Assembly: GCA_002747735.1 (NCBI GenBank)
Contig: PDQE01000022.1
Span: forward strand, 1 to 9,909
From: Flavobacteriales bacterium
Lineage (GTDB): Bacteria > Bacteroidota > Bacteroidia > Flavobacteriales > Flavobacteriaceae
Direction: 5' to 3'
Length of the DNA: 9,909 bases
A program made the translations under genes and the position numbers. This document shows positions 1,554 to 9,709 of this stretch, one piece after another. Numbering within the stretch: the first letter of the stretch is position 1; each line of letters begins with the position of its first letter. The notes under the pieces are model-generated. The model made no database searches, was not told the origin of the DNA, and saw nothing but the letters and a program-made list of their open reading frames with translations.

Positions 1554-4500
1554 TTACTGAACCTCAATCCTGACTCCCTTGCTATGGCTGCTAAACTCCG
1601 GGGCATACATACTTTGGATAGTAGTGATGCCATTAGAAAAATTACCGGCATTATTCACACGTAAATCGTATTCAAACACATAAACGCCTTGGGGTAAATA
1701 GCTAAAAAAGAAATTGGTAGCGGCATCTTTAGTGCTTTGGTAATAGCCTAAGCCATCTTGCCATTTGTATTGAGACAATACATCTACGGGTTCAAAACCG
1801 GCTGCTCGCATGTCTTTCATGTGTACAAATTCCATTCCCCTATCTACTTTTATTTCTATTCTTACCCTAATTAAATCGCCAATTTCTAAGGTGATTCCCG
1901 GAGCTATTTTTTTTAGTTGTTCGCCCGTGGCGGTATTTTCTTTTAAAAATAATTTTTTGGACAATTGCAATGGTGTTTTCGCTGAAGTTATTTTGTCTAA
2001 ATCTTCGAAATATTGCCAATACAAGGCTCCCCAAGCTATTCCATCCGTATTTTTTTCTAAGGTAACGGTAGCCATTTCAGGTTGTATTTCCTCACCTTTC
2101 CATGAGGTTTTAAAGTATCCGGTACCGGCTTCTGCATTAATATTTTCTGTTTTTTCAGGTGCTATGGTGCTGTTGCCAATTTTCATTTTTACCAAGTCTG
2201 TATCTTCCAGCCAGTTACTGCCTTGTAACAGCAAAGCATACACGGCCTCGGAAGTAGCTTTTGTGGTTTTCCAACTGTTGGTTTGCTTATTTTTAAGTAA
2301 CCAGACTTTGAGTTCATCTACTGTCTTGGTATCTGCAGCTATTTCGCTAAACGCTTCTATCATTAAAGCCTGAATTTCAACCGGAGCCTGATACCAGAAA
2401 TATCCGGCTTGGTTTTTTTTCCAGTACATACCTAATTCTTCGTTATAAACCGCATTTTCTTTTAACGATGCTAAAATTTTCTCAGTTATGGTTTTTTCAC
2501 CATTCCTGTGGGCAATTAGAGCAATCAAACCTTTGGAATATAAATTGTTATCCATCCAGAATTTATAGCTTTGCCTGGTAAAATAGCTTACTGCTTTTTG
2601 TGCTTTTGTTGGGATAGGCTTGTTTCCAAAAAAGCTACGCATATACAGATATTGAATCTGAACAGTGCCGGTATGGTTGTCTGCCCAAAATGCTCTTACT
2701 AAGCGTTTGGCCTCGGCTTTGTTTGTGGCTCTCTTCTCAATCTTTTTGGCTTGTTTTTTTAGTTTTTTAAAATCGTCATAGATTTCATTATCCAGAAATG
2801 ACAAGGCTTTATCTGTTATTTTAGTTACGGATTTATCGCTGTTGTTTGAAATAACATTTAGGTGCTGTAAGTGTCCCAAACCGGTTACAATGTATTGGGT
2901 AATATAGCGGTTGGGATAATGGCTACCCATAAACCACGGGAAACCGCCGTTGTTCATTTGCATACGTTCTAATTTTCTAAGGGCAGCATCTAACTCATTT
3001 TTCATTTTATTCAGATTAAACAACAGAGCAATGCGTTTTTTCTGTTCCGCTTCGGATTGGGCACTGCGTAGCCAAGGGGTCTCCTGAATGATAAGTGATT
3101 TTAGTTCCTCATTTTTTTCTAAATTGCTTAATAAGGCATCACTATTTTTCCATTGCTCAAATACTTCTTGTATTCTGGGATTGCTTGTTGCTACATGGCT
3201 TCCCAGAGCATTAGCATAGTAACGGGCAAAGGTCTGCTCTGAGCATTCGTAAGGATACTCCATGAGATAAGGTAATGCCTGCACTGCGTACCAAGCGGGA
3301 TTGGAAGTCACTTCCAAACTTAAATTGTAATTTTTTAAACTGGTGGAATTATGGTTCTTCATCTTATCCAGCGTAAATGTTTTGGTTTGGTTAGAACGCA
3401 CCCACAAGGGCAGTGTTTCGGTAACCAGCATCCTATTGGTAAGTACCGGAAGGGCATTTTCTTCCCCGTCTGAGAAATTATCGGCTTTAGCCACTATTTT
3501 GTATTTTACAGCCTGTATATCATCCGGAATTTGTAAGGTGAAACTAATTTGGGTATTGCCTTTTGCGGCTACATCAAAATTTTTCTTACCAGTATTGTTG
3601 CCCAGTTTTTGGTCTATTGGCTTATTTGTAAATGCGTCATATAGAAATAATTGGCTACTTCCGGTGAGTTTTTTTTCAGTTAAATTGGCAATTTTACTAC
3701 TAAAAACAATAGTGTCTCCTTGCCTGAAAAAACGTGGCGGGTTGGGTATTACCATTAGCTCTTTTTGTGTTACCACGGTCATTTCTTTTTGATCAAAAGC
3801 CAGGTCTTTAGTATGGGTTAACAACTGCAATTTCCATTTAGTTAAACTTTCGGGTGCGGTAAAGTTAAAACTGATGTTGCCGTCTGCATCTGTAGTGAGT
3901 TGTGGATAGAAAAAGGCAGTTTCTTTTAAGTTTTTTCTCACGGCTATATTTCCAATATCCAACTTCATGTCCGTTTTATTTTTGTCACCTTCTCCTCTTT
4001 TTTCTTTATTTATTTCTGCCATTTGAGCAGGTAAAGCCTTATCAGCATATTCCATGACTTCCTCTTCTACTTCTGCTAATTCTTCCAAATTATCCATAAC
4101 GCGTTCAGTTGATGCAGGGGCTACGCCTCTTATCATTTTTCTTTTTTTAGTGCCATGTCCAATTACCACCACTTCATCTAAAGCAGTTTTACTTTCACTA
4201 AGGGCTATTTTATAAAAATTGTCTGCACTAAGTGTTAGTTTTACCGATTGAAAACCTACATAAGTAATAATTAAAGTCTCTCCTGGTTTAGCTTTTATCT
4301 TAAAATTACCGTCAAAATCAGTTTGTGTGCCTCGGGTAGTACCTTTAATTATAACGTTTACTCCAGGCAAAGTGTGTTTCCCGTCAGTAACTTGGCCAAA
4401 TACATAACCATCTTTTTTGTCGGGTTCTATTTTGGAGGTAAAATCGGCAGGTTTTATATCGTGTTTTTGCCTAATAACATCTAGATAACTGTTATTAGCC

Positions 4501-7500
4501 CAAGAATTAATCAGGCTAAAGCCAAACCAGTTTAACTTATCATATTTTTGTGGGTTAAAGCTAATGTAGCTGTTATTTTGTATAATTGTTTTAAAATTAT
4601 CCGTACCAAAACTGTGGTTGGCATGGCTGTAATTATACAGATAATAACCGGGATAACGAATTGGCGAAAAATACCAATAATGTGGTTTAAATTGGTCTAA
4701 AGAAGCATCGTACATAGACGCTAACATTTCTGCAGTAACTTTGTCTTTTTTATCGCCTTTGATTGTAAAACGAAAAGTTTCTTCTTGTCCGGGCTGTAAT
4801 TTGTCTCTGAATGTACTGGTTTCTATGGTTAATTCCTTTTTGGGATAGGGCACATTAATTTGTTCATGGCCATTAAGAAAATGGTTGATGTTTACCAATT
4901 GATATAAAATAGAAAACCCGCCCAAATCGTCTTTTGTAACCGGAATTTCCAATGTTTTTATCTCATCCGAAAGATGAATAACCTCCTGTTTTACAATTTC
5001 ATATTTTTTTACAACGGTAACCGTAATCCATAAGTCTTTTGATGCCGAACCTATTTTTAGCTTTACCTTTTCATCCGGAAGATATTCGTTTTTATCAGTG
5101 CTTACGTTTATTAATTGATTGTCAGTTACTTTTTTGTCCTTTGGGCTAAATATTGTGATGATTTGTTCGGTTTTTACGTCTTGCCCAAATTTATCTTTGG
5201 CACGAGCCACCACTTTATATTTTCCCGAGGCCCAATTTTTGAGTTCTTTTAAAGCTATTTCTTTGTTGTCTTTAGTGTTAAATTCTTTTGAAAAAACATT
5301 TTGGCCTATATCCCAAAATTCAGGATTGTTTTCATTTTTATAGGCTTCGTATGGAAACATTTCTTTAAACTTTTCTCTATTTACAAGTTGATAATCCGGA
5401 GTTTCCCATGGCCTATTTCGCAATGTGTTTTTCGGGGCGATGAGTTTGTAAATGTTTAGTTCGCCTTTAATGGGAACAAACTGCCCATTTAGATTTTCTG
5501 TTGCTATTTTTATTTGATGATTTTTAACAGTTTTATCCAGTTGTGAGGGGGTGTCCAAGTTTATGGTTAATGCGTGATACCCAACGTTTACTACGGTTTC
5601 CGCAGTACGGGTTTCACCGTTGAGGTCTGTTACATCGGCAATAACTCTGTAATTAAAAACCGGTTGTGTTTTAGGATCTATAGAAGTGTCCGGAATGGCT
5701 TTAAATGTAAGGGTGTAGCTTCCCTGTGCGTTAGTCTCCGTAATACCATTTGTAATTTCCATCTCCTCACTAGAATAATATGGCCGTCTCCAATACCACC
5801 AGTCCGGAAATTGTGCTGTCCTTACTATCCGGTAGGCCACTTTGGCATTGGTGATATTGCTGCCGGCGTAGGCTATTGCAGTACCTTTTATAGTAATGCT
5901 GTCATTGAGCCTAAAGGTTTCCGTTACGGGTTTAAAACTGGTTTCAAATTTTGGTCTTTTGTATTCTTCTACGGAGATAGATGTGTTGCCTCCAAATCCG
6001 TATTGGAAGACGTCAGTATTTTTTACTTCAATAGTAAATGTACCGGTTAGTCCACTACTGGGTAGGATTAATTCACCGGAAAATGAACCAAATTCATTAG
6101 TTTTTAAGCTCAACTTTTTAATTTCCTGTCGGTTTACATCCAATAAATGTACGGTTACCTTACGGTTTGCAATTACTTCTGATTTTGCATTTTCCATTTT
6201 TACTGCAATACCCTTAAAATGTACGGTTTGTCCCGGCCTGTAAATGCTGCGATTTGTAAATAAAAATACTTGCCGGTAGGCTTCATTATTAATGGGTTTA
6301 TGATAGTTGTTTTCGTAGAGATAAAAATCACCAAATACAGCTTTGTCACCTTTGTGAACTATCGTTATTTTTACATTAGTTCGATATTTATCAATAGTAA
6401 ATACTGCCATCCCGTTTTTATCAGTAACCATGTTTCGGTTAATGGCTTTGTTATACCGGCCGGTTTGGTAATTTTTTAAGTTTATGGTGGCGTTTTGTAG
6501 TGGTTTGCCTGTATTTCGGTTTACTACCTGATAGTGATATTTACCAAACATAATATTTTCAATGAGGGCAATATCAGTAACTTGTACAATATTGTAAGCA
6601 AAGGTGTTGTCGCTATTTAACCCCTTTTTTGTAGATGCAAAAAGCAGATAATTTCCTTGTTCCAATTTAGGTACGGCTATTTCCGAACTGTGGTTTAAAT
6701 AATCTCTTTCGTCTTTAAGCTCAGTTTGCCAATTTGCTACTTCTTTCAGTTTTTTTATAAAACTTATTCTGTCACTGTTAGAATATATTTTATTGAGTTT
6801 TTCCCATTGGTTGAGACTTATTTTAAAAGCTTTAAAATTCAGGGTGTCTATATTTTTATAGTTTACCAATACTTTAGAGTGCTTTTTAATGGGAATAAAC
6901 TGTTCATTGGTAATAGTTAGTTCCTTATTGGTGATTTTATCGGCTAAACTTTTACATTTTTCAGCACCTGTAGTTTTTGGATAAGTGTTTGCTGCTTTAA
7001 GGCAAATTTCCAATGCTTTCCGTTTATAAAAACGGTAATTTTCAAAAATACCCAGTTTATATTTTTCTGCTAGGATGTAGTACTGATTAGCCAAGGCATA
7101 GTCTGCTTCCGTAACGATACCGTTGTCTTTAAATTGCCGTTTTAAATGTTCTAAGGTGCGGATGTACAGGCTGTCTTTATCTTTAAATACAGCGTTGTTT
7201 AATACAAATTGTAAACGTTGTAAACTCACTTTTATTAACGCTTCCGGATGCTTGCTCTTTTGATGGAAAAGTGTTATGTTTTTTAAAATTTTTAAAGCCT
7301 GAAGGGCTTGTGCCATACTGTCTTTGGCTTTGAATTGTATCTTGGTAAACTCTTTATTGTCAGATAGAAATTTCGGATTGTCTAACTCAAATTTAAAGGC
7401 AGGCCGGGTGAGGTATTGTTCATCGGTTGTATAAAAATCTAATGCCCGCTGAGCCAGAAAGTCGTAAAGGGTAGGCCGATGTTTTTTGGAATTTTCTGCA

Positions 7501-8042
7501 AGATGCAGGATGCCGTTAAATTTTTCTAATTCTATCTCTTGTAATTCCAATGCACTTTTCAAAGACTTTTTAAAATGCTTTCCGGTTTCCGCAAAAATAG
7601 TAGCTAAGTCCCAGGTTCTAAAATCTATGGAATCTACTTTTGTGGCTGTATGGGTGCGTTGGTAAAACTGCCATCGGTTTTGTTGGTAATATTGATAATA
7701 AATATCGGCAATAATACTGTGTAGAATGTTGGAAATGGGTGTTGTACTATTTTTTGCAGTTGTTTTTAAATCGGTTATTATTTGTAGCGTAGCATCTTCT
7801 TCAAGCGTTAAAGCAAATTTTGATTTATAAATTAGAGATTTAATCAACTGTACATCATTCCTTTCTTTTTTGGCCTTATTGTAAATTTCAAGCACTAAGG
7901 CTAAGGCCGATTTTGGTAAGCCTTCCAATTCTAATTTTTCTACTTCAAACCATTGTTTTGTGTAAGAATTGTTGGTATTGTTTTGGGCATTTGCCACAAA
8001 GGAGGTGAGTATTACAGTTAAAATTGCGATATATTTTTGCAT
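1554..8042 (-). CDS. Alpha-2-macroglobulin family protein with SusC-like insert
   Basis: About 2162 residues, larger than the roughly 1500-1700 usual for bacterial macroglobulins, which trap proteases in the cell envelope via a thioester. Residues 1-19 form a Sec signal peptide ending ANA before Gln20; no lipobox Cys exists, so it is not a lipoprotein. Approximate layout: helical, repeat-like N-terminal region 23-390; macroglobulin domains with MG2 near 587-690 (SIYRPGQTVHFKG); bait-region domain 970-1110; aromatic-rich stretch 1115-1175; SusC-like segment 1214-1312; charged linker 1298-1363; MG7 1366-1460 (NFTAPESLTKWKLQLLTH); thioester domain 1580-1940 with intact CSEQ (C1600-Q1603, bases 3245-3234); receptor-binding-like C-terminus 2040-2162. 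No type IX secretion C-terminal domain is evident. The reading frame could open at a TTG at 8066, but the ATG at 8042 puts the signal peptide exactly at the N-terminus. No pbpC, the proteobacterial partner, is adjacent. Protease trapping is inferred from the family. Confidence 0.93.
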   Translation of the reverse strand: MQKYIAILTVILTSFVANAQNNTNNSYTKQWFEVEKLELEGLPKSALALVLEIYNKAKKERNDVQLIKSLIYKSKFALTLEEDATLQIITDLKTTAKNSTTPISNILHSIIADIYYQYYQQNRWQFYQRTHTATKVDSIDFRTWDLATIFAETGKHFKKSLKSALELQEIELEKFNGILHLAENSKKHRPTLYDFLAQRALDFYTTDEQYLTRPAFKFELDNPKFLSDNKEFTKIQFKAKDSMAQALQALKILKNITLFHQKSKHPEALIKVSLQRLQFVLNNAVFKDKDSLYIRTLEHLKRQFKDNGIVTEADYALANQYYILAEKYKLGIFENYRFYKRKALEICLKAANTYPKTTGAEKCKSLADKITNKELTITNEQFIPIKKHSKVLVNYKNIDTLNFKAFKISLNQWEKLNKIYSNSDRISFIKKLKEVANWQTELKDERDYLNHSSEIAVPKLEQGNYLLFASTKKGLNSDNTFAYNIVQVTDIALIENIMFGKYHYQVVNRNTGKPLQNATINLKNYQTGRYNKAINRNMVTDKNGMAVFTIDKYRTNVKITIVHKGDKAVFGDFYLYENNYHKPINNEAYRQVFLFTNRSIYRPGQTVHFKGIAVKMENAKSEVIANRKVTVHLLDVNRQEIKKLSLKTNEFGSFSGELILPSSGLTGTFTIEVKNTDVFQYGFGGNTSISVEEYKRPKFETSFKPVTETFRLNDSITIKGTAIAYAGSNITNAKVAYRIVRTAQFPDWWYWRRPYYSSEEMEITNGITETNAQGSYTLTFKAIPDTSIDPKTQPVFNYRVIADVTDLNGETRTAETVVNVGYHALTINLDTPSQLDKTVKNHQIKIATENLNGQFVPIKGELNIYKLIAPKNTLRNRPWETPDYQLVNREKFKEMFPYEAYKNENNPEFWDIGQNVFSKEFNTKDNKEIALKELKNWASGKYKVVARAKDKFGQDVKTEQIITIFSPKDKKVTDNQLINVSTDKNEYLPDEKVKLKIGSASKDLWITVTVVKKYEIVKQEVIHLSDEIKTLEIPVTKDDLGGFSILYQLVNINHFLNGHEQINVPYPKKELTIETSTFRDKLQPGQEETFRFTIKGDKKDKVTAEMLASMYDASLDQFKPHYWYFSPIRYPGYYLYNYSHANHSFGTDNFKTIIQNNSYISFNPQKYDKLNWFGFSLINSWANNSYLDVIRQKHDIKPADFTSKIEPDKKDGYVFGQVTDGKHTLPGVNVIIKGTTRGTQTDFDGNFKIKAKPGETLIITYVGFQSVKLTLSADNFYKIALSESKTALDEVVVIGHGTKKRKMIRGVAPASTERVMDNLEELAEVEEEVMEYADKALPAQMAEINKEKRGEGDKNKTDMKLDIGNIAVRKNLKETAFFYPQLTTDADGNISFNFTAPESLTKWKLQLLTHTKDLAFDQKEMTVVTQKELMVIPNPPRFFRQGDTIVFSSKIANLTEKKLTGSSQLFLYDAFTNKPIDQKLGNNTGKKNFDVAAKGNTQISFTLQIPDDIQAVKYKIVAKADNFSDGEENALPVLTNRMLVTETLPLWVRSNQTKTFTLDKMKNHNSTSLKNYNLSLEVTSNPAWYAVQALPYLMEYPYECSEQTFARYYANALGSHVATSNPRIQEVFEQWKNSDALLSNLEKNEELKSLIIQETPWLRSAQSEAEQKKRIALLFNLNKMKNELDAALRKLERMQMNNGGFPWFMGSHYPNRYITQYIVTGLGHLQHLNVISNNSDKSVTKITDKALSFLDNEIYDDFKKLKKQAKKIEKRATNKAEAKRLVRAFWADNHTGTVQIQYLYMRSFFGNKPIPTKAQKAVSYFTRQSYKFWMDNNLYSKGLIALIAHRNGEKTITEKILASLKENAVYNEELGMYWKKNQAGYFWYQAPVEIQALMIEAFSEIAADTKTVDELKVWLLKNKQTNSWKTTKATSEAVYALLLQGSNWLEDTDLVKMKIGNSTIAPEKTENINAEAGTGYFKTSWKGEEIQPEMATVTLEKNTDGIAWGALYWQYFEDLDKITSAKTPLQLSKKLFLKENTATGEQLKKIAPGITLEIGDLIRVRIEIKVDRGMEFVHMKDMRAAGFEPVDVLSQYKWQDGLGYYQSTKDAATNFFFSYLPQGVYVFEYDLRVNNAGNFSNGITTIQSMYAPEFSSHSKGVRIEVQ
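4107..4403 (-). other. SusC-type N-terminal segment inside the macroglobulin
   Basis: Residues 1214-1282 (ATG numbering) are a carboxypeptidase-regulatory-like beta domain (GQVTDGKHTLPGVNVIIKG, then TDFDGNFKIKA and ITYVGFQSVKL). They are followed by ALDEVVVIGHGTKKRK, matching the LDEVVVxGYGTQKK signature that links this domain to the plug in SusC/RagA TonB-dependent transporters. The following MIRGVAPAST resembles the first residues of a plug. No beta-barrel follows; the macroglobulin resumes at MG7. The identity of the segment is seen in the sequence; its function here is unknown. Confidence 0.85.
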
Positions 8043-8209: not shown

Positions 8210-8767
8210 ATGCTTACATCACAACAATTATACCAACAAACATTTAATAAAACCGTAGTGTTGCTACAGCACAATCAAAAAGGTAATGCCATTGCAGAAC
8301 TATTGTTAAGAATATTTGATTATTGGGATAAGCCTGTGGATTTTTATTTGGAAAATAGCGGAAAATCAAGTTTTTCGTCCAATGGTGATTTTATTATAAT
8401 ACAATCAGAGCAAGTGGCAGAATTGGCTCTGAATATTGTGTTAATCTGTGAAATGCCCAATGATTATTCTGTTGCGGAAGAATTGTTAGAAAATATTACC
8501 GATGGTGGAATGTTGGTGTTTAATGAAGATGACAATAACCTGAAAGACGCTGTAGATAAGTATAAAAAACCAGTAAAAAAATACCCATATAATCAATTGG
8601 TTATTCCGGAAACATCTAAAAAGATTTTTTTAGAAACCGATGAGGGAAATTTGCCCATTACTATAAATGATGCCTTTGTGGTAAGGTGTCTTATAGGCAT
8701 AAAATGGATATGCCAACACATGGGTATAGACGAAGCAGAATTTTATGAGGCAGTGGCGGCGGTTTAA
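8210..8767 (+). CDS. Small protein related to the Mur ligase Mpl, lacking catalytic motifs
   Basis: A 185-residue cytoplasmic-looking protein without signal peptide or membrane segment. Several stretches resemble the central domain of Bacteroidota Mpl (UDP-N-acetylmuramate:tripeptide ligase of peptidoglycan recycling): NITDGGMLVFNEDD (95-108), LETDEGNLPITI (141-152) and IKWICQHMGIDEAEFYEAV (164-182), in the same order as in Mpl. The region NKTVVLLQHNQKGNAIAEL (13-31) sits where the GTHGKT P-loop would be, but the glycines and Thr are gone. The GxHNxxN motif before the last stretch is replaced by NDAFVVRC. The UDP-binding N-terminal and most of the C-terminal domain are absent. It should therefore be catalytically inactive. 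The frame is intact with a good promoter element, which argues for a maintained gene rather than decay. The homology is from recollection of Mpl sequence and needs a profile search; alternatively it is an unrelated conserved hypothetical protein. Confidence 0.6.
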   Translation: MLTSQQLYQQTFNKTVVLLQHNQKGNAIAELLLRIFDYWDKPVDFYLENSGKSSFSSNGDFIIIQSEQVAELALNIVLICEMPNDYSVAEELLENITDGGMLVFNEDDNNLKDAVDKYKKPVKKYPYNQLVIPETSKKIFLETDEGNLPITINDAFVVRCLIGIKWICQHMGIDEAEFYEAVAAV

Positions 8768-8827: not shown

Positions 8828-9709
8828 TTATTCTTTATAACCAAACTTTCGCAGTTGACGGTTGTCTGAACGCCAGTCTTTATTGACTTTAACAAAAATT
8901 TCCAGAAATATTTTTTTACCAAAGAATTTTTCTAAATCTTTTCTTGCCTCAGTTCCTATTCTTTTTAGGGCTGTACCCTTATGCCCAATGATAATGCCTT
9001 TTTGCGACTCACGTTCCACCATAATAATCGATTTTATTTTAATGATGTTTTTTTCATCTGTAAAAGATTCGGTAATTACCTCTACAGCATAGGGAATTTC
9101 TTTTTTATAATGTAGCAATATTTTTTCCCGGATGGTTTCATTTACAAAAAATCGTTCCGGTTTATCGGTAAATTGGTCTTTTGGAAAAAAAGGCGGTGAC
9201 TCTGGCAACAAGTCGATAATTTTTTCAAATACAGGGGTAATATTAAATTTTTCTATGGCCGAGACAGGAAAGATAATTGCATTGGGAACTTTATCCTGCC
9301 AGTATTTCAACTGTTTCGTAACCTTTTCCTGATCTGATTTATCAATCTTATTTATGAGTAGCAATACTGGGATTTTAGATTGGGTTATTTTATTAAAAAA
9401 GTCTTCGTTTTTAAGCCCTTTTTCGCCTATTTCTACCATATAAATGAGAATGTCGGCATCGTCTAAGGCAGTTTTTACAAAGTCCATCATGGCATCCTGT
9501 AACTTATAGGCAGGTTTAATGATGCCTGGCGTATCAGAAAAAATCACCTGAAAATTATCATCGTTAACAATGCCTAAAATACGGTGCCGTGTAGTCTGGG
9601 CTTTGGATGTAATAATAGATAACTTTTCCCCTACAAAAGCGTTGATTAGAGTGGACTTGCCCACATTTGGATTACCCAGAATATTTACAAAACCAGCTTT
9701 ATGTGGCAT
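8828..9709 (-). CDS. era: GTPase Era, ribosome assembly factor
   Basis: A complete 293-residue protein of typical Era length. The GTPase domain shows G1 GNPNVGKST (12-20), the switch I Thr region TTRHRILG (39-46), G3 DTPG (59-62), G4 NKID (120-123) and G5 SA (150-151). The C-terminal KH domain carries IIGHKGTALKRIG (240-252) and ends in the usual NKDWRSDNRQLRKFGY. Era binds the 3' end of 16S rRNA through the KH domain and acts as a GTP-dependent checkpoint in 30S maturation; it is essential or near-essential in most bacteria. The ATG at 9709 places G1 at the expected distance. An exact -7 element lies just upstream, so the gene is probably transcribed from its own promoter rather than only from the antiporter gene upstream. 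All key residues are intact. Confidence 0.98.
   Translation of the reverse strand: MPHKAGFVNILGNPNVGKSTLINAFVGEKLSIITSKAQTTRHRILGIVNDDNFQVIFSDTPGIIKPAYKLQDAMMDFVKTALDDADILIYMVEIGEKGLKNEDFFNKITQSKIPVLLLINKIDKSDQEKVTKQLKYWQDKVPNAIIFPVSAIEKFNITPVFEKIIDLLPESPPFFPKDQFTDKPERFFVNETIREKILLHYKKEIPYAVEVITESFTDEKNIIKIKSIIMVERESQKGIIIGHKGTALKRIGTEARKDLEKFFGKKIFLEIFVKVNKDWRSDNRQLRKFGYKE

What the first reader, a model, noticed from the sequence alone, without database searches (positions are those of the whole stretch)
4107..4403. SusC-type domain and TonB-transporter signature inserted into a macroglobulin at the bait position
An alpha-2-macroglobulin carries, between its bait-region domain and MG7, a carboxypeptidase-regulatory-like domain plus ALDEVVVIGHGTKKRK. 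This is the hallmark junction of SusC/RagA transporters, but no barrel follows. In transporters this region faces the periplasm near TonB. Placed in a protease trap, it might dock to the transporter or TonB machinery, present a protease-sensitive surface, or trigger the conformational change on cleavage. The domains are seen directly; the functional idea is inference. Related flavobacterial macroglobulins may share it, so the architecture may be lineage-wide rather than unique.
Basis: partly seen in the sequence, partly recalled or inferred. Interest (0 to 1): 0.72.

Follow-up and report, generated by a model that had tools for sequence, protein, structure and literature searches.

The report
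Protease trap baited with self fragments
A bacterial protease-trapping protein carries, in the loop that proteases are meant to cut, a domain of the kind found in the cell's own nutrient transporters, and some relatives carry pieces of other cell-envelope proteins there, so the trap may lure proteases with look-alikes of what it protects.

Summary
Residues 1214-1306 of a thioester alpha-2-macroglobulin (window 1554-8042, minus) match the SusC/RagA N-terminus: the NTE domain (PF13715, E 6e-19) plus the TonB box DEVVVIG. They sit at the bait position; AlphaFold shows a folded NTE followed by a disordered TonB-box linker. It is not unique. SusC-type sequence was found in 63 of 76 delimited baits (the window's and 75 of the 80 kept genome loci), in 19 of 36 family members of a phylum-wide sample, and in 4 of 81 other macroglobulins. 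Some baits hold a nearly whole SusC plug; a second macroglobulin family has NTE plus plug there in 117 of 120 listed members. Unexpectedly, some baits hold short pieces of LptD (10 of 225 baits), PBP1A (7 of 225, six distinct, three weak) or GldJ (2-3 of 225), so the family's bait looks like a collage of the cell's own periplasm-facing proteins. My best reading is an integrated decoy: proteases that attack these machines cut the bait and are trapped (probability 0.4; function untested). Rivals are TonB docking and tolerated genetic passengers. My searches of open-licence papers listed none that describes this.

The parts
1554..8042 (-). alpha-2-macroglobulin gene, 2162 aa
   Evidence: homologues
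7983..8042 (-). signal-peptide-like start (residues 1-20), no lipobox seen
   Evidence: sequence; 0 of 76 aligned family members show a lipobox by a simple pattern
6015..6272 (-). MG2 domain, residues 591-676
   Evidence: PF01835 E 1.1e-20
4722..5111 (-). A2M_BRD, residues 978-1107
   Evidence: PF07703 E 6.8e-9
4164..4400 (-). SusC-type NTE domain inserted at the bait position, residues 1215-1293 (modelled strands 1200-1280)
   Evidence: PF13715 E 6.3e-19; pLDDT block means 90-95 over model residues 241-320
4158..4178 (-). TonB box DEVVVIG, residues 1289-1295
   Evidence: TIGR04056 match to 1306; box profile 20.5 bits; L1288, E1290 and V1291 are the only near-invariant columns of the bait stretch in an alignment of 46 sequences that I chose, mostly NTE-bearing; Bt1763 TonB box DEVVVTG (PMC7782687)
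3963..4184 (-). disordered linker holding the TonB box, residues 1287-1360; likely cleavage region
   Evidence: pLDDT under 50 at model residues 323-396; that cleavage occurs here is inference
3657..3920 (-). A2M domain directly after the bait, residues 1375-1462
   Evidence: PF00207 E 3e-15
3234..3245 (-). thioester motif CSEQ, residues 1600-1603
   Evidence: sequence; CxEQ at the aligned place in 75 of 76 family members
1596..1970 (-). bMG10 domain, residues 2025-2149
   Evidence: PF17973 E 2.1e-33

Best explanation
This is a periplasmic type I (thioester) alpha-2-macroglobulin of a family whose bait regions are built from pieces of the cell's own envelope proteins. In the window it is the N-terminal unit of a SusC transporter: the NTE fold plus the TonB box in a disordered linker. 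Proposed mechanism: the bait is an integrated decoy. A protease in the periplasm that would attack the periplasm-facing parts of the transporters (and, in some relatives, LptD, PBP1A or GldJ) cuts the look-alike bait instead; the macroglobulin then collapses around it and links it through the thioester. Shown: the architecture, its position, its spread, SusC-like conservation in plug-bearing members, and pieces of four kinds of envelope protein within the family. From established A2M biology: bait cleavage triggers trapping. Inferred only: that resemblance to self proteins is what selection keeps, and which proteases are meant.
For: (1) SusC NTE/box/plug profiles made from 26 of 30 fetched SusC proteins hit 63 of 76 baits (window and 75 named loci), 19 of 36 family members of the phylum sample, and 4 of 81 other A2M segments; cut-offs are the best of 965 shuffled sequences. 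(2) In 41 plug-bearing A2M modules the conserved columns are those of SusC itself (LDEVVVVGYG, RG, DG, LYG, NGV, TTK) although no barrel follows. (3) NTE codons are constrained: dN/dS 0.06-0.35 in the 11 of 14 hand-picked pairs that could be computed; the rest of the bait is looser, 0.16-1.26 in 12 of 14. (4) Some baits hold an LptD piece (10 of 225, best 61.5 bits, best of 1530 shuffles 9.0) or a PBP1A piece (7 of 225, six distinct baits, 8.0-22.1 bits against 5.6) or a GldJ piece (L075 23.8 and 20.8 bits, L005 12.8, P0107 7.1; shuffles 7.5 and 5.1); in none of these three tests did any of the 81 other A2M segments exceed the shuffles. Donors came from six-frame genome searches and were named by LptD_2, Transgly/Transpeptidase and TIGR03524 GldJ on two examples each. 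(5) In 15 of 20 short baits with both motifs the SusC pieces stand in the reverse of their SusC order: content is kept more than order. (6) A second A2M family has NTE plus plug at the same place in 117 of 120 listed members. (7) A paper on engineering the human A2M bait into selective inhibitors (PMC8267569, title and start of abstract in listings) and one in which an all Gly/Ser bait stays functional (PMC9352918, abstract) show that bait sequence can set specificity and is free to change.
Against: No protease is identified and nothing was assayed. The LptD, PBP1A and GldJ pieces are rare, were first picked out by eye, and three of the seven PBP1A scores (8.0-8.2) are barely above the shuffles; 225 baits are 217 distinct ones. 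13 of 76 baits show no SusC piece. In the window only SusC material is recognised: the linker after the TonB box hit nothing in 4 relatives' genomes (its own genome is not held), and a Pedobacter-type piece hit only other A2Ms, so 3 of 5 unexplained pieces found a donor. NTE is less constrained than the A2M core after the bait (0.05-0.15 where computed), and the 21-codon TonB-box window varies widely, 0.07-1.03.
Confidence: 0.4

Rival explanations
1. TonB docking. The NTE plus TonB box is the TonB-facing unit of SusC, so TonB binds the bait loop, parks the trap at the Ton machinery and may even pull on it. In plug-bearing relatives force could unfold the plug and expose or retract the bait.
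For: TonB-box residues are the only near-invariant bait columns in the 46-sequence alignment and L-x-E-V-V-V is near-invariant in 41 members of the second family. In 94 baits without NTE or plug a TonB-box-like motif (loose pattern) is the commonest relic: alone in 23, against LxG alone in 4 and RG alone in 5. The TonB box is predicted disordered. NTE is proposed to give TonB specificity (PMC7782687 section 12; PMC12204202 passage). No lipobox in 76 members, in line with a soluble periplasmic protein.
Against: Does not explain LptD, PBP1A or GldJ pieces, nor plug motifs kept in short baits. By profile the box is missing in 4 of 19 NTE-plus-plug baits and 8 of 22 NTE-only baits; strict [DE]EVV[VIT] is in only 12 of 31 short baits. 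No complex was modelled.
Confidence: 0.27
2. Tolerated passengers. The bait loop accepts almost any sequence, so stray recombination, mostly with the many SusC genes, drops gene pieces there and they decay.
For: Bait type needs 27 changes on a quick tree of 76 orthologues that carries long-branch warnings. Motif order is rearranged. SusC copies are many. Nearest relatives of the Polaribacter bait are SusC of its own genome, and SusC outrank distant A2M baits. An all Gly/Ser bait works in human A2M (PMC9352918 abstract).
Against: NTE under purifying selection; plug columns conserved like SusC; 41 of 46 A2M modules form one clade (98/100), so they were kept for long; near-universal module in the second family; the four kinds of donor found are envelope proteins (their location is established knowledge).
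Confidence: 0.2
3. A folded domain at the bait works like the anaphylatoxin domain of complement C3: cleavage next to it frees or re-presents the NTE and TonB box as a signal or docking element.
For: Folded NTE at the bait position with disordered flanks. The top Foldseek hits of the model are complement proteins; that C3 has its anaphylatoxin domain at this place is recalled.
Against: The fold differs from anaphylatoxin (recalled, not tested). 35 of 76 orthologues lack the NTE.
Confidence: 0.08

Closest known systems
Bacterial type I alpha-2-macroglobulins (E. coli ECAM, Salmonella SaA2M)
   Same: BRD, A2M and bMG10 domains, CxEQ motif, bait between two halves of one MG domain
   Different: bait holds a folded SusC NTE and TonB box; in cleaved ECAM a 20-residue bait stretch is simply disordered (PMC4498604 passage); no lipobox seen here, whereas ECAM-type proteins are anchored to the inner membrane (same passages)
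SusC/RagA TonB-dependent transporters (Bt1763, RagA)
   Same: NTE domain and TonB box in the same order
   Different: no barrel; no plug in the window, plug only in relatives
Complement C3/C4/C5 with the anaphylatoxin domain at the bait site
   Same: a folded domain sits at the bait position (recalled for C3; Foldseek top hits)
   Different: different inserted domain (recalled), here of transporter origin
Engineered human A2M with target-selective baits (PMC8267569, title and start of abstract only)
   Same: bait sequence sets protease specificity
   Different: natural, and made of self envelope proteins
Integrated decoys of plant NLR receptors (recalled)
   Same: a copy of a guarded protein built into the defence protein
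   Different: no sequence relation; protease trap, not receptor

Membership tests
type I alpha-2-macroglobulin | MG2, A2M_BRD, A2M and bMG10 domains | tested here: met
   all four above Pfam cut-offs
type I alpha-2-macroglobulin | CxEQ thioester motif | tested here: met
   CSEQ at 1600-1603
type I alpha-2-macroglobulin | thioester forms and bait cleavage traps proteases | not testable with these tools
   needs biochemistry
SusC/RagA TonB-dependent transporter | NTE domain (PF13715) | tested here: met
   fold match of the homologue L002 to 9hfj
SusC/RagA TonB-dependent transporter | TonB box | tested here: met
   DEVVVIG, sequence only
SusC/RagA TonB-dependent transporter | plug domain and barrel; TIGR04056 over its cut-off | tested here: not met
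   TIGR04056 95.9 bits against 368.25, positions 3-96 of 981; no plug or barrel family listed for the window protein up to E 1
TonB-bound protein | physical binding of TonB | not testable with these tools
   no complex prediction or assay available
integrated decoy (functional class) | copies of several guarded self proteins in the sensing part | tested here: inconclusive
   met at family level only: SusC, LptD, PBP1A, GldJ pieces; in the window SusC only
integrated decoy (functional class) | attackers of the guarded protein act on the copy | not testable with these tools
   needs protease assays

The most novel reading that the evidence does not exclude
Bacteroidota macroglobulins carry self-collage baits: the protease-sensing loop is an evolving mosaic of periplasm-facing pieces of the cell's own envelope machines (SusC transporters, LptD, PBP1A, GldJ), kept by selection as an integrated multi-target decoy. 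In plug-bearing forms TonB could in addition pull on the bait.
Probability: 0.4. Interest if true: 0.9.

Novelty: new variant of a known kind. Interest (0 to 1): 0.75.

Why it matters
[quoted passage not shown] If the bait copies the cell's own envelope machines, the sequence itself names what is being protected, and the attacking proteases become findable by asking what cuts those pieces. It would also be a bacterial case of an integrated decoy, and a natural way of tuning macroglobulin specificity.

Tried and rejected
Uniqueness: rejected, the insert is common.

Chance or misreading: rejected.

Repeated fresh capture from SusC: suggested by a nested pair (L013 and L063 with SusC L238 and L243, 100/100) and by same-genome SusC being nearest to the Polaribacter bait, but for the Aureibaculum bait the two nearest are other A2Ms, and the AU test does not reject one origin for family A with that pair (p 0.575, the held tree is even likelier). 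105 bases at 80 percent identity to a SusC of the same genome are only suggestive. L011 and L145 are unstable in the trees. Two separate origins in the two macroglobulin families: also not shown (p 0.936, held tree likelier, on a random subset of 24 family A, 12 family B and 44 SusC rows). Neither recapture nor two origins is claimed.

Short baits as plain deletion remnants: not favoured, since order is reversed in 15 of 20.

A first SusC pattern missed 14 of 30 SusC proteins and was replaced; 4 of 30 (L211, L216, L219, L224) were still left out of the profiles. A loose pattern of mine for the plug core matched only 7 of 120 second-family proteins, while the plug profile passed 118 of 120. The TonB-box profile passed 101 of those 120.

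Literature: nine searches. Searches found no paper; for the others I saw only the listed titles and abstract starts (8 to 25 papers each, out of 110 to 871 for those on macroglobulins and 132 and 319). None listed describes this. Only open-licence PMC papers are searchable. Database product names already call some of these proteins 'SusC/RagA subfamily, signature region' or the like.

Structure: models cover residues 965-1545 (pTM 0.46, 46 sequences) and the same part of the homologue L002 (pTM 0.38, 31 sequences); relative domain placement is not trusted. No plug structure appears among the 50 rows shown, although a reduced plug core is modelled at pLDDT about 65-75.

Full report
WHAT IS THERE. 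The minus strand of the window carries one long gene, 1554-8042, for a 2162-residue macroglobulin with a signal-peptide-like start, MG2, A2M_BRD, A2M and bMG10 domains and a CSEQ thioester motif. Between A2M_BRD and A2M lies the SusC-type segment: PF13715 at 1215-1293 (E 6.3e-19) and TIGR04056 at 1214-1306, profile positions 3-96 of 981. The six PDB relatives of the 99-residue segment are SusC homologues, RagA and TonB-linked receptors, some of them isolated NTE domains. The motif DEVVVIG at 1289-1295 corresponds to the TonB box DEVVVTG of Bt1763; TonB-box mutants there had a levan growth defect like that of the SusD deletion (PMC7782687, passages and section 12 seen). There is no plug and no barrel in the window protein.

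HOW WIDE. 75 of these and the window protein were long enough to delimit the bait. By SusC profiles: 19 have NTE and plug, 22 NTE without plug (the window among them), 4 plug without NTE, 18 only TonB-box or short plug motifs, 13 none. In a draw of 198 Bacteroidota genomes, 85 had a PF00207 match. Of the 115 matches I read 110 (left out: one that is L015, one that is L081, and three low-scoring ones) and added 7 segments. By profiles of the flanks 36 of these 117 segments belong to this family and 81 do not. SusC profiles hit 19 of 36 and 4 of 81; of the 4, two are generic NTE-like domains (L099, L173) and two (L144, L145) are a second family. That second family (full genes in L293, L294) has PF13715 and plug hits at the bait. 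Of its 120 listed homologues (737 found), 119 have the NTE, 118 the plug, 117 both in order before the A2M domain, 101 the TonB box by profile, and all 120 contain a C-x-E-Q.

HOW IT EVOLVES. On a quick tree of the 76 orthologues the bait type needs 27 changes: near relatives differ. Yet 41 of 46 A2M modules bearing NTE, box and plug form one clade apart from 68 SusC (98/100) and keep the SusC pattern of conserved residues. AU tests reject neither one origin for family A with the L013/L063 pair (p 0.575) nor one origin for both families (p 0.936 on a subset); I do not claim repeated capture. NTE dN/dS is 0.06-0.35 in the 11 of 14 hand-picked pairs that could be computed, the rest of the bait 0.16-1.26 in 12 of 14, the TonB-box window 0.07-1.03 in 13 of 14, the A2M core after the bait 0.05-0.15 where computable; many dS values are near saturation. 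In 94 baits without NTE and plug the TonB-box-like motif is the commonest relic; where it occurs with the LxGKVAGV motif, that plug motif precedes it in 15 of 20, the reverse of SusC. Strict [DE]EVV[VIT] occurs in 12 of 31 short baits against 0.07 expected by shuffling.

OTHER SELF PIECES. Some baits hold a segment like NPEYYFKANKIKVVPSDSIVTGATNMIISDV (P0053). A six-frame search found its like once in each of five flavobacterial genomes in a frame of 914-934 residues, besides one macroglobulin; two of the five were scanned and are LptD (PF19838). 10 of 225 baits (10 distinct) score above every one of 1530 shuffles, 61.5 bits at best. Another piece, W-x-P-K-N-S-x-x-K-Y-G, was put together from seven baits picked by eye; in five genomes it also rings in one frame of 764-783 residues (E 2e-6, 4e-5, 1e-4, 0.0097, 0.9), and two of the five were scanned and are class A penicillin-binding proteins; the piece lies just before their SxN motif (motif recalled). 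7 of 225 baits (6 distinct) exceed the shuffles, three of them barely. A third, in L075, is two neighbouring pieces of GldJ (E 0.0003-0.008 in four genomes, its own among them; TIGR03524 on the two frames scanned); L005 has one of them and P0107 a weak trace. None of the 81 other macroglobulin segments exceeds the shuffles for any of the three. Two further pieces, one of them the window's own linker, found no donor in the four genomes each was searched in; the window's own genome is not held.

MECHANISM. Established: macroglobulins are triggered by bait cleavage, and an all Gly/Ser bait still works (PMC4498604 passages; PMC9352918 abstract). Observed: this family fills the bait with pieces of four kinds of envelope protein, SusC above all. 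The explanation that covers all pieces is an integrated decoy; I give it 0.4. TonB docking explains the NTE and TonB box best (0.27) but not LptD, PBP1A or GldJ. Passengers explain the turnover (0.2) but not the constraint. A C3-like released domain gets 0.08. These are not fully exclusive: a decoy could also be held at TonB.

SURROUNDINGS. Neighbours are an Era-like GTPase (8828-9709, minus), a small Mpl-like protein (8210-8767), a GntR/FCD regulator (645-1355) and a GlcNAc 2-epimerase fragment (3-377, minus). A gene of the same cluster, Mpl by recall of its sequence, is the most frequent neighbour, in 59 of 81 loci (80 and the window). The Pfam hits of these neighbours do not point to TonB.

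VERDICT. Observation confirmed; a new variant of a known kind, with a bold and testable functional reading. My nine paper searches listed none that describes it (open-licence PMC papers, top listings only).

Noticed in passing
window 8210-8767 (+): A 185-206 aa protein without a Pfam hit is a shortened relative (30-32% identity to the middle part) of 454-484 aa neighbours that I take from recall to be the murein-peptide ligase Mpl; short forms also occur in L001 and L015 (37-39%), so it looks like a conserved mini-Mpl beside the macroglobulin.
   Followed up: partly
loci L001-L080: A gene of that Mpl-like cluster lies close to the macroglobulin in 59 of 81 loci, window included; macroglobulin and peptidoglycan recycling may be linked.
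   Followed up: partly
L144, L145, L293, L294 and P0121-P0240: A second thioester-motif macroglobulin family (named members from Chitinophagaceae) with SusC NTE and plug at the bait in 117 of 120 listed members.
   Followed up: yes
L035, L143, L017, L069, L061, P0053, P0072, P0080, P0097, P0099: Bait pieces of LptD in ten family A baits.
   Followed up: yes
L012 (near-identical to P0081), L072, L111, P0009, P0023, P0034: Bait piece W-x-P-K-N-S-x-x-K-Y-G matching class A penicillin-binding proteins.
   Followed up: yes
L124-L126: Three family A baits hold an NTE-like (carboxypeptidase-regulatory-like) domain without TonB box, followed by a Pro/Ala-rich linker.
   Followed up: no
L076 (Hymenobacter sp. 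CRA2): Short bait with two TonB-box-like motifs, EVVVYG and NEVVTVGYGTQ.
   Followed up: no
L036 and L149: Shared bait piece KVYDFVSI..YD.K.D.YIINGKP with no donor found outside macroglobulins in 4 genomes.
   Followed up: partly
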